Shown here one piece after another: positions 1-3,591 of a DNA stretch of 64,000 nt. Origin of the DNA: Defluviitaleaceae bacterium (GTDB lineage Bacteria; Bacillota; Clostridia; Lachnospirales; WRBF01); assembly GCA_009784685.1 (NCBI GenBank), contig WRBF01000001.1:1-64000 (forward strand), read 5' to 3'. The number at the start of each line of letters is the position of its first letter. The stretch's first letter is position 1. The notes beneath the pieces are model-generated. The model did not search any database and was not told the DNA's origin. It was given only the letters and a program-made list of their open reading frames with translations. Made by a program: the position numbers and the translations under genes.

Positions 1-83
1 ATTCTCGGTCTTGGTGTACGGCTAGTACGACCTGCGACCTCAAATTTCGAATAAACGAATTTTTAGCGGCTTTAGGTCGGAGA

Positions 84-249
84 GTTTTGAGTCGGAAATT
101 TTTATTCCTGCCACGAAAAGAGATCGCAGCCTTACCAATGTAAGGCAAGGGCTGTCAGTACTTTTGTCTACGACAAAAGCGGCTGTGCCGCCGGGCTTCT
201 TCCCGGTACGCATTGACAAAGGCAGGGATAAAAATTTCCAACTCAAAAC
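84..249. repeat. Structured inverted-repeat element (29-nt arms 84-112 and 221-249, 27/29 complementary, enclosing several hairpins)
   Basis: GTTTTGAGTCGGAAATTTTTATTCCTGCC vs reverse complement of GGCAGGGATAAAAATTTCCAACTCAAAAC; internal stems gccttac/gtaaggc (129-146), cttttgtc/gacaaaag (161-179), ccggg/cccgg (191-206). Confidence 0.75.
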
Positions 250-341
250 CGTGTTGTACATTGTATTGCAAGGGTAGTAATAGTAAGTAATATAGTGACA
301 TATGCAACACTTGCCGCATATGTCACTCTTTGATTAAATTA

Positions 342-2039
342 CTAGAATAATTCCCCTAAATTACGAGTAATTATTTCCTCAATATCTGATATCAACATGT
401 TTCTAAGAGCTCTTGGTCTTTGAGGCATATCAACTCTGCCGCTGAATCTTCTAATAGTGATTCTCGCATCACCATCTGAAAGATTAATTGTCCTTGGACC
501 ATCCCAACGGTCATTTAAACGCACCGACGATAAATATGCAACAATATTACGTGCTGGCGTTAATCCAATATTACCTCTAAGTGTAGCTTCACTGCCCCAT
601 TCAGACCATTCACTCCATCCTTCTTGAGACCATTCCGCCATCATGTCTTCCCAAAAATAACCCATCTCTTCTTGCAAATTGGCTAGCTCTTCTTCTGAAA
701 TATCACCAAAAATATCTTCTATAGACATTGGCTCTCTAAAGCTTCTCCAAGAGGAGATGGAGTTATATCTCATTAAGAAATTATTCGTACTGTTTTCGGT
801 GTTCCAGTCGATAGTAAACCTTATGACATCGTTATGTTCAGAAGACCACCATCTAGAGCTGTTTTCGATAACAAGCTCACTTCTGAAATGATTTGTTCTA
901 ACGTTATTGCCAATTAACGAAATTTTCGTTGTATTTCTATCGCCAACGCTTGAAAAATGAATATGGTCAAGCATATTATCTCGCCCTAAAGCACCAAATT
1001 CAATTCTGTTACTGTAATCATTTGCCATAGTTATAACAACGCCGATATATATGCCGTTTGATTCAATAAATTCAAGTATCAAATCATCTCTAAATGGTTC
1101 AATATACTCAAGCTCTTCAAGCAATACTTCAAGCATATGCTCCGTGCCTCTTAAAGAAAACAGCCCAAATGGCATGAACCCTAAGCTATGCAAAGAATCA
1201 AAGTAAGCTGTGACGCCTTCATCATTCAAAATTAACGTGACTGCTTCGATTAAGAATTTGTTTAACTCTTCTGCGGGAACAACTACTCTTGTAACATCTC
1301 TTTCAACAGATATTCCATTAAATTCAAGTGCCCTGTATCCAACAGTAATTCTTGAACTTCTGAACAGATTTCTGTAAGCTGATTCAAGATTTTGAATTGT
1401 TTCAGCACTTAATTGATAATCTGAGCCATCAAATAGTAATCTGATAATGTTGTCATATGAAATATCATTATCAAAAAATCTGAGAAGCCATCCGGATACC
1501 CATGCTAAAGTCGTATCTTGATTTAATTCACTGAAAGCCTTTATGTCGTCAAATGGGTCATGCGCATTTAAAAATATACTGTCGTCAAAAAGTCTCAATA
1601 TAGCCCGGTCATTTGTAAAGTAGGCACCTAAATCAAGATAGAAGCCCAGAAAGTCATCATCTTCAAATTCATCCATTTCGACGGCTAAACCAAATGCTAA
1701 AGCTCTGTCCCAACGGCTGTTAGTTATATCAACATCAAACCTTGGCAATGGGAAATACCAACGGCTTTCACGATCTTGAAATGCATCAAGGTTTAATTCC
1801 ATACGTGCGTTAAAATCTTCTGCAAATAATTCACTTATACGAGAAATTAATTCGTTGTTTGTAACACTTTCAAGCTCAGAACTAAGTTCTCTTACAGTGT
1901 TTGAAAGAGTTAAATCAAAATGCAACTCAGGGCTTACTGACCTAATAATATCTGCCCTGCGGGAATATGCCAAAACTATAGAGCTGATTAAAATAACAGA
2001 AATCAACGTTAGGATCGAAAATTTGAAAAGTTTTCTCAT
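342..2039 (-). CDS. Hypothetical secreted/membrane-anchored protein, paralogous to the 2137-3591 product
   Basis: 565 aa ORF with N-terminal hydrophobic signal-like segment; C-terminus aligns with the neighbouring ORF. Confidence 0.8.
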   Translation of the reverse strand: MRKLFKFSILTLISVILISSIVLAYSRRADIIRSVSPELHFDLTLSNTVRELSSELESVTNNELISRISELFAEDFNARMELNLDAFQDRESRWYFPLPRFDVDITNSRWDRALAFGLAVEMDEFEDDDFLGFYLDLGAYFTNDRAILRLFDDSIFLNAHDPFDDIKAFSELNQDTTLAWVSGWLLRFFDNDISYDNIIRLLFDGSDYQLSAETIQNLESAYRNLFRSSRITVGYRALEFNGISVERDVTRVVVPAEELNKFLIEAVTLILNDEGVTAYFDSLHSLGFMPFGLFSLRGTEHMLEVLLEELEYIEPFRDDLILEFIESNGIYIGVVITMANDYSNRIEFGALGRDNMLDHIHFSSVGDRNTTKISLIGNNVRTNHFRSELVIENSSRWWSSEHNDVIRFTIDWNTENSTNNFLMRYNSISSWRSFREPMSIEDIFGDISEEELANLQEEMGYFWEDMMAEWSQEGWSEWSEWGSEATLRGNIGLTPARNIVAYLSSVRLNDRWDGPRTINLSDGDARITIRRFSGRVDMPQRPRALRNMLISDIEEIITRNLGELF

Positions 2040-2136: not shown

Positions 2137-3591
2137 CTACATAAATGCAAATACTAAAGGCATTATTAACATTTCGATGTCAAACATTGACATATCTCTT
2201 AAAGGTCTTAAATTCGTTGGAACATTTATTGCTTGACCAAGATCACTGATCGTTATTTTGAAATCTCCGTCACTAAATGTTATAGTTTCCCCGCCTATGC
2301 GAGCAGACGATAAGGAGAATACAACGTCATTATTGTCAGATACTGCGAATGTTCCTCTAATATTTCCAAGGGCATGAAGATCAATAACAAAATTGTCATA
2401 AGATTGAGTCGTGTCCCATTCAAAACTGAACATAATAGTATCAAAGTCTGTACGAATTGTTACGTTGACTGAATAATTGTCTGTATTCACATTGCTGCCG
2501 GTTATAGAAAAGAAGAAAGAATCAAATCCATCAGGATCATCGAATGAAATATAGAAGTTATCAAGCATATTAACTTCCCCGATTGCTCCTATTTCAAATA
2601 CACTTCCATCAGGATCTTCAATACGGATTGCGATGTATCTTCCATCTCTTTCAATGAATTGAACAGCTATGTAACCACTCATTAAGCCGGATAATTCATC
2701 AATAGATGCGTGCATTTCATCCATCAACATAGCGTTGAATCCCATTGATTGATAAATTTCATCATCTAATATAACTTTTAAAGCATCAACAATAAATTCA
2801 TTTAATCTCGAACCATTTACTGCAATTGATGTTACTATTACATCTCCTTGAATTTGATCAAAGTCAACTGTTCTATCTTCAATTGTATAAACGAAACCTC
2901 TTGCTAATTCATCATAAAGTTCTTCAAGTCTATTCAGTGTGTATTCGCTTAAAGAGTCATTTGCAGCTAAGCCGCCGGAAGGTCCAATGAATAACTCGCT
3001 ATATGATAATCCGCTAATTCCCATTTCTTCAAGCATTGCAATATCAAGTTCACGTTCAAGTCCAAGACCGTTTGCGTTAGAAAACGCCATTAGATCATCA
3101 AAGAAATTAGAAGCACTGACAGAGATGTTTTCGCCTAAAAAGCTTACAATAACATCTGAATCCGTCAAGAAAAGCCCAATATCCATCATTTCTTGAACAT
3201 CTACGGTAAGAGCCAAAACTCTGTCTCTTAAACTGTTGCTTAAGTTTGAAGTTATTAAAGGCATTCCGGCATCAAAGCCCATGAAGCTATTAACATTAAG
3301 TAAAAGTTCAATATCAAATTCACCCGTTGCAAATATTTCGCCCATTTGTGCAAATACTCTGTTGTCACCAAGGCTCATAAGCTCTGATTCAAGATGACGC
3401 ATAGTGTATGCCCAAGTAGCGTTAAAATATTCGGCAGGGTTAGAACGGTCAACACTTCTGCGTTCAGCAGGTGCTGTGCCATTTGAGCCGCCTGTTTCTC
3501 CGGGTGTTGCACAAGCAGATAGCACTAAGATCATAACCATAACAAGTGCTATCATCATACTGATAAATTTCAAAGACCTTCTTCTAATCAT
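2137..3591 (-). CDS. Putative lipoprotein of unknown function
   Basis: 484 aa ORF; signal peptide with lipobox-like LVLSAC; RBS upstream. Confidence 0.82.
   Translation of the reverse strand: MIRRRSLKFISMMIALVMVMILVLSACATPGETGGSNGTAPAERRSVDRSNPAEYFNATWAYTMRHLESELMSLGDNRVFAQMGEIFATGEFDIELLLNVNSFMGFDAGMPLITSNLSNSLRDRVLALTVDVQEMMDIGLFLTDSDVIVSFLGENISVSASNFFDDLMAFSNANGLGLERELDIAMLEEMGISGLSYSELFIGPSGGLAANDSLSEYTLNRLEELYDELARGFVYTIEDRTVDFDQIQGDVIVTSIAVNGSRLNEFIVDALKVILDDEIYQSMGFNAMLMDEMHASIDELSGLMSGYIAVQFIERDGRYIAIRIEDPDGSVFEIGAIGEVNMLDNFYISFDDPDGFDSFFFSITGSNVNTDNYSVNVTIRTDFDTIMFSFEWDTTQSYDNFVIDLHALGNIRGTFAVSDNNDVVFSLSSARIGGETITFSDGDFKITISDLGQAINVPTNLRPLRDMSMFDIEMLIMPLVFAFM

What the first reader, a model, noticed from the sequence alone, without database searches (positions are those of the whole stretch)
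84..249. 166-bp inverted-repeat element with stacked hairpins
Seen: 29-nt arms (27/29 paired) enclose about 108 bp carrying three further perfect or near-perfect stems; another dyad (ggtgtacg...gtacgacc, 13-32) lies just outside. An antisense ORF (40-261) exists but is probably by-product of the repeat. Resembles a MITE, REP-like element or structured RNA; the flank 1-83 may belong to the same element.
Basis: seen in the sequence. Interest (0 to 1): 0.6.

Follow-up and report, generated by a model that had tools for sequence, protein, structure and literature searches.

The report
TA-flanked MITE with nested cloverleaf module
The inverted repeat is the inner part of a small non-coding mobile element (a MITE) that is scattered dozens of times through this bacterium's genome, has a relative with the same hairpin architecture but unrelated ends in another bacterial family, and carries a 55-base folded module that is itself dispersed across the whole bacterial order.

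Summary
In detail: arms 84-112/221-249, 27/29 paired. It is not the whole element. Window 1-276 is the right-hand part of a TIR-bounded repeat cut by the contig start. Complete copies read TA-CCCTTGCAATACAATGTACAACACG...CGTGTTGTACATTGTATTGCAAGGG-TA and fold as a TIR stem carrying two long hairpins; 84-249 is one of these.

The TIR occurs 81 times in this 1.53-Mb genome (0 in the reversed control), next to TA in 73 of 80. About 40 of 112 contig ends lie inside it. Copies are 272, 330 or 387 bp, plus thirteen 43-54-bp TIR-TIR palindromes that look like internal-deletion forms. No transposase with these ends was found. Best reading: a MITE family of IS630/Tc1-mariner type.

Two features are less ordinary. 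A genome of another family has elements with homologous interior (60-75% identity against 49% shuffled) but unrelated TIRs (47% against 44%). The "three further stems" (155-209) form a separate 55-nt cloverleaf-like module with strong covariation (98.4% of cells paired, 9 pairs changed on both sides, 0/500 shuffles). It is dispersed, sometimes tandem, in at least five families of the order, with no Rfam match.

The parts
1..276 (-). Right-hand part of the MITE copy; its left TIR and the outer arm of hairpin B lie beyond the contig start (orientation defined so that hairpin A comes first)
   Evidence: 95-100% identical copies elsewhere in the genome, complete in C31, C5, C17
250..274 (-). Terminal inverted repeat (read on - strand: CCCTTGCAATACAATGTACAACACG)
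   Evidence: 81 sites in own genome, 0 in reversed control; the only site in the window, 0 expected
275..276 (.). TA dinucleotide flanking the TIR, presumed target duplication
   Evidence: TA adjoins 73 of 80 TIR sites, no further flank conservation
84..249 (.). Hairpin A, the finding: 29-nt arms 84-112 / 221-249 with conserved inner hairpin and inserted module
   Evidence: homologous hairpin in G065
129..146 (.). Inner hairpin GCCTTAC-CAAT-GTAAGGC, the best conserved stretch between the two families
   Evidence: invariant columns in A1
155..209 (+). 55-nt cloverleaf-like module: closing stem 158-160/207-209, hairpins 161-167/173-179, 180-183/187-190, 191-195/202-206; absent from some copies, present at a second site in hairpin B of others
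   Evidence: covariation; model match 81.5 bits; copies outside the MITE and in other families
1..76 (.). Part of hairpin B: one arm CGAATTTTTAGCGGCTTTAGG at 56-76 and apex dyad 13-32; the partner arm is beyond the contig start
   Evidence: complete copies fold with this arm paired
77..83 (.). Junction between hairpins A and B
   Evidence: unpaired spacer in folds of complete copies
40..261 (-). 73-aa antisense ORF, by-product
   Evidence: frame not kept between copies with and without the 58-nt module

Best explanation
The finding is hairpin A of one copy of a non-autonomous, TIR-bounded, TA-flanked miniature transposable element (MITE) of about 276-391 bp including the flanking TAs. Shown: it is multi-copy and non-coding, has 25-27-bp terminal inverted repeats, is flanked by TA, has two long internal hairpins, shows short derivatives down to bare TIR-TIR palindromes of about 46 bp, and has a homologous family with different TIRs in another bacterial family. 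Inferred: copies are moved by cut-and-paste at TA sites by an IS630/Tc1-mariner-type transposase encoded elsewhere (missing from the 77%-complete assembly, or lost). The internal 55-nt cloverleaf-like module is a second, independently spreading repeat nested in the MITE. The interior is kept by selection for its hairpin structure (as RNA or as single-stranded DNA), while the TIRs are exchanged to match whichever transposase is present.
For: 111 BLAST matches in own genome. TIR 81 sites against 0 in the reversed control. TA adjoins 73/80 and no longer duplication is seen. Complete copies in C5, C17, C31, one interrupting a vapC-like gene whose halves lie on either side. Size series 43-54/272/330/387 bp, with the same kind of series (48-54, 72, 117, 175, 273-275, 338, 419, 825 bp) around the unrelated TIR TAGGTCAAGGAGAGTCGAAC in G065, where short forms keep the edges of the long form. 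Folding z = -19.6 (G000) and -12.4 (G065) for complete elements. Interior homologous with unrelated TIRs. A truncated IS630-family transposase in G065 (NF033545 5e-34) shows that such elements have been in these lineages.
Against: No transposase with matching TIRs was found. DDE_3 is absent from the own genome, and the IS630 remnant in G065 has no pair of matching ends. No empty site was available, so the TA duplication is inferred from flanks and from two unrelated TIRs sharing only the TA. The interior is better conserved than the TIRs, which is not expected of a plain passive MITE.
Confidence: 0.75

Rival explanations
1. The two-hairpin interior (A+B) is the real unit: a conserved structured RNA or ssDNA element that has been captured by, or inserts into the centre of, unrelated TIR palindromes, so that the TIRs are incidental carriers.
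For: Interior 60-75% identical between families, TIRs at chance level. Both families have bare TIR-TIR palindromes as possible acceptors. The inner hairpin and junction are nearly invariant.
Against: The short palindromes of G065 keep edge sequences of the long element (aatgagc...caag; aatgagcggttttgcgg|ctatgggtgcccaag), so they look like deletion products rather than acceptors. No interior copy clearly free of TIRs was seen except broken ones. No promoter-like site, no Rfam match.
Confidence: 0.17
2. A fixed intergenic repeat of REP/ERIC type that acts on mRNA (terminator, RNase III site or DNA-binding site) and no longer moves.
For: Almost all complete copies examined are intergenic. Very stable hairpins on both strands.
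Against: 95-100% identity among many copies and insertion into a vapC-like gene point to recent movement. Patchy occurrence: 2 of 392 genomes of the order.
Confidence: 0.06
3. Assembly artefact: hairpin-like sequence made at contig ends.
For: About 40 of 112 contig ends lie in the element.
Against: Complete copies lie deep inside contigs with unique flanks on both sides (C5:51631, C17:28008, C31:8694). A homologous family exists in an independent genome.
Confidence: 0.01

Closest known systems
Correia elements / NEMIS of Neisseria (per review PMC2229807)
   Same: TIR of about 24 bp, TA at the termini, long stem-loop transcripts, two size classes differing by an optional internal segment of about 50 bp
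   Different: Here two side-by-side long hairpins inside the TIR stem. The optional 55-nt module is a covarying cloverleaf that also lives outside the element and in other families. TIR sequence not compared directly.
RUP of Streptococcus pneumoniae, proposed to be mobilised by IS630-Spn1 (PMC2229807)
   Same: Small, multi-copy, TA target, proposed IS630-type trans-mobilisation
   Different: RUP is a 107-bp repeat whose TIRs match a known IS; here no matching IS was found
CIR repeats of Caulobacter/Brucella (PMC2229807)
   Same: Two long inverted repeats forming two arms with a linker, conserved across genera
   Different: CIRs are listed without TIRs; here the two arms sit inside a 25-27-bp TIR stem
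ERIC/IRU, RPE and other small bacterial repeats (PMC2229807)
   Same: Palindromic repeats of about 100-200 bp with stable stem-loops, TA termini in ERIC
   Different: Different structure and host group; no sequence match sought beyond Rfam, plasmids and phages (none found)

Membership tests
MITE (miniature inverted-repeat transposable element) | Multiple dispersed near-identical copies | tested here: met
   111 BLAST matches, 81 TIR sites
MITE (miniature inverted-repeat transposable element) | Terminal inverted repeats | tested here: met
   25-27-bp TIRs in complete copies
MITE (miniature inverted-repeat transposable element) | No coding capacity | tested here: met
   Only a 73-aa ORF, not kept across copies
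MITE (miniature inverted-repeat transposable element) | Target-site duplication shown by an empty site | tested here: inconclusive
   TA on both sides (73/80), no longer duplication; no related genome with an empty site held
MITE (miniature inverted-repeat transposable element) | Autonomous parent element with the same TIRs identified | tested here: inconclusive
   No opposing TIR pair enclosing a gene in the own genome or G065; the own assembly is only 77% complete
IS630/Tc1-mariner-derived element | Insertion at TA | tested here: met
   TA flanks; the unrelated TIR of G065 also begins next to TA; duplication itself not shown
IS630/Tc1-mariner-derived element | TIRs shared with an IS630-family transposase gene | tested here: not met
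   DDE_3 absent from own genome; truncated IS630 transposase in G065 without matching ends. Hence not filed as a proven IS630 derivative, only as working like one
Known structured RNA family (Rfam 15) | Match to a covariance model | tested here: not met
   No match in 1-340 even at E<=10
REP/RAYT or IS200/IS605-type hairpin element (for the 55-nt module) | Association with a Y1 (RAYT) transposase | not tested

The most novel reading that the evidence does not exclude
The 55-nt cloverleaf module and the two-hairpin interior are structure-conserved mobile units of this bacterial order that spread by settling in the hairpins of unrelated repeats. In these elements selection acts on the folded interior (RNA or single-stranded DNA) rather than on the terminal repeats, the reverse of an ordinary MITE.
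Probability: 0.2. Interest if true: 0.7.

Novelty: new variant of a known kind. Interest (0 to 1): 0.45.

Why it matters
MITEs are normally recognised by their ends. Here the interior is conserved between bacterial families while the ends are replaced, and a covarying cloverleaf module travels both inside and outside the element. If confirmed, this gives a tractable case in which structure, not termini, is selected in a bacterial mini-transposon, and a new structured repeat family in this order. Practically, it also explains much of the fragmentation of this genome assembly.

Tried and rejected
Known RNA family: no Rfam hit at gathering or at E<=10. Phage or plasmid origin: no match to the element or the module. 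Other species: exact and degenerate TIR patterns gave nothing in the 84,980-species genome collection (near-identical records may be hidden there) and, in IMG/VR, only one contig of 24,005 bp, the same length as own contig C22, so taken as the same contig. The single two-mismatch TIR hit in G184 was taken as chance. The 12-nt TAGGTCAAGGAG upstream of the IS630 remnant in G065 (L210:599) was rejected as evidence of a shared TIR because it lies inside a different palindromic repeat and has no partner. Coding ORF: frame not kept. Short palindromes as ancestors of the long element: judged less likely because in G065 their centres keep edge sequences of the long form.

Full report
1. Observation. 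Inverted repeat 84-112/221-249 is present, 27 of 29 positions paired. The segment folds far better than dinucleotide shuffles (z -8.7 on +, -10.3 on -). The window begins at base 1 of contig C1 of its assembly (1.53 Mb, 56 contigs, 77% complete), so what is seen is a cut copy.

2. Extent and copies. BLAST of 1-340 against the own genome gives 111 matches. Complete copies in C31, C5 and C17 show the element: TA-CCCTTGCAATACAATGTACAACACG ... CGTGTTGTACATTGTATTGCAAGGG-TA. The 22-nt TIR core occurs 81 times with up to 3 mismatches, and 0 times read backwards. In the window it is at 253-274 only, 0 expected. TA adjoins 73 of 80 sites and positions beyond it are not conserved. By my tally, 40 of 112 contig ends lie in the element, so it is a main cause of the fragmentation. 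One copy (C17:28008) splits a vapC-like gene: the two halves lie on either side and a vapB-like frame lies upstream (read by eye), with a PIN match on one half (E 0.0005, just below Pfam's cut-off). The flanks were not joined in that gene.

3. Anatomy. Complete copies fold as a TIR stem bearing two long hairpins. Hairpin A is the finding. Hairpin B is represented in the window by 1-76, with the dyad 13-32 at its apex. Copies are 272, 330 or 387 bp between TIR ends according to whether a 55-58-nt module is absent, present in one hairpin or present in both. Thirteen copies are bare TIR-TIR palindromes of 43-54 bp. The ORF 40-261 is not kept, because the module in hairpin A changes the length by 58, not divisible by 3.

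4. A relative with other ends. Searching 295 genomes of the order with 84-249 gave a hit to hairpin A in genome G065, of another family. G065 holds 35 matches to that stretch, about 13 of them covering hairpin A, with TIR TAGGTCAAGGAGAGTCGAAC (77 sites, 0 reversed), also next to TA, and a similar size series from 48 to 825 bp. Short forms there keep the edges of the long form, so they are internal-deletion derivatives. Between the two families hairpin A is 75% identical, the junction 71% and B 60% (shuffled 49%), whereas the TIRs are at chance (47% and 43% against 44% and 45%). A covariance model of hairpin A finds only these two among 392 genomes of the order (stricter filters, so weak relatives may be missed). 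The interior is thus better conserved than the ends. Horizontal spread with TIR replacement, or selection on the fold, are the readings I can offer; which one holds is not settled.

5. The nested module. Window 155-209 is a separate repeat. It occurs outside the MITE in the same genome (for example C5:46144, C54, C42, C6, C24, C12, C50, C22) and in other genomes of families f5, f12, f16 and f17. Counting the own family (f1), that is at least five families. Tandem runs occur: three in G000 C24, three in G143, two in G128. On 20 sequences a closing stem plus three hairpins have 98.4% of cells paired and 9 of 19 pairs changed on both sides, exceeding all 500 shuffles and all slid versions. The sequences are related, so the shuffle count is not a probability. 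For example, the closing stem appears as GTA/TAC, GAA/TTC and GCA/TGC. The 5' TCAG is invariant in the set and the third loop is mostly CTTCTT. Comparison of hairpins with and without the module shows no clear target duplication (by eye). No Rfam match, none in plasmids, phages or IMG/VR. How it moves is unknown; an ssDNA route (REP or IS605-like) is a guess and untested.

6. Mechanism. Shown: multi-copy, TIR, TA flanks, size series, insertion into a gene, conserved fold. Inferred: TA-specific cut-and-paste by an IS630/Tc1-mariner transposase in trans. DDE_3 is absent from the own assembly. G065 has one truncated IS630 transposase without matching ends. I put this part at about 0.65, against about 0.95 for 'TIR-bounded mobile repeat'.

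7. Known kinds. The review PMC2229807 lists bacterial MITEs with TA termini, TIRs of 7-24 bp and stem-loop transcripts. Correia/NEMIS has an optional 50-bp internal segment, RUP is tied to IS630-Spn1, and CIR has two arms and a linker. The present element combines these traits, and differs in having conserved interior with exchanged ends and a covarying module of independent dispersal.

Noticed in passing
L063, L064, L065, L083 (contigs C4:63080, C6:42449, C44:2528, C37:11608); G065 C3:79079, C15:42137: Short TIR-TIR palindromes often carry the same substitution in both arms (e.g. CCATTGC/GCAATGG), which suggests correction of one arm from the other by template switching rather than independent mutation.
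   Followed up: partly
L181, L190, L193 (G065): Three loci hold a 29-bp form TAGGTCAAGGTTCGACTCTCCTTGACCTA, as expected from deletion between two CAAG direct repeats; either recurrent deletion or very small mobile forms.
   Followed up: no
L101 (C22), L070 (C50), L022 (C12) and G065 (L116, L210): Another dispersed repeat apparently shared by both genomes (CTCAAAACAGTARCAGAAAAACGCAG...), in some copies with the 55-nt module beside it; the two families share several repeat families.
   Followed up: no
L062:2081-2363 (C33): A 283-bp palindromic element with a variant of the same TIR but a different interior (GTCATTGCGG...CCGGAATGAC), next to a 47-bp bare palindrome.
   Followed up: no
L114:453-736 (C24): Three tandem copies of a longer form of the module (about 92 nt, expanded second hairpin), copies 2 and 3 almost identical.
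   Followed up: partly
window 294-327: A 12-bp perfect stem-loop just left of the 565-aa ORF (342-2039, - strand), probably that gene's terminator; the MITE lies beyond it.
   Followed up: no
window 342-2039 and 2137-3591: Two adjacent secreted or lipoprotein-like ORFs (565 and 484 aa) of similar layout, perhaps paralogues; not examined.
   Followed up: no
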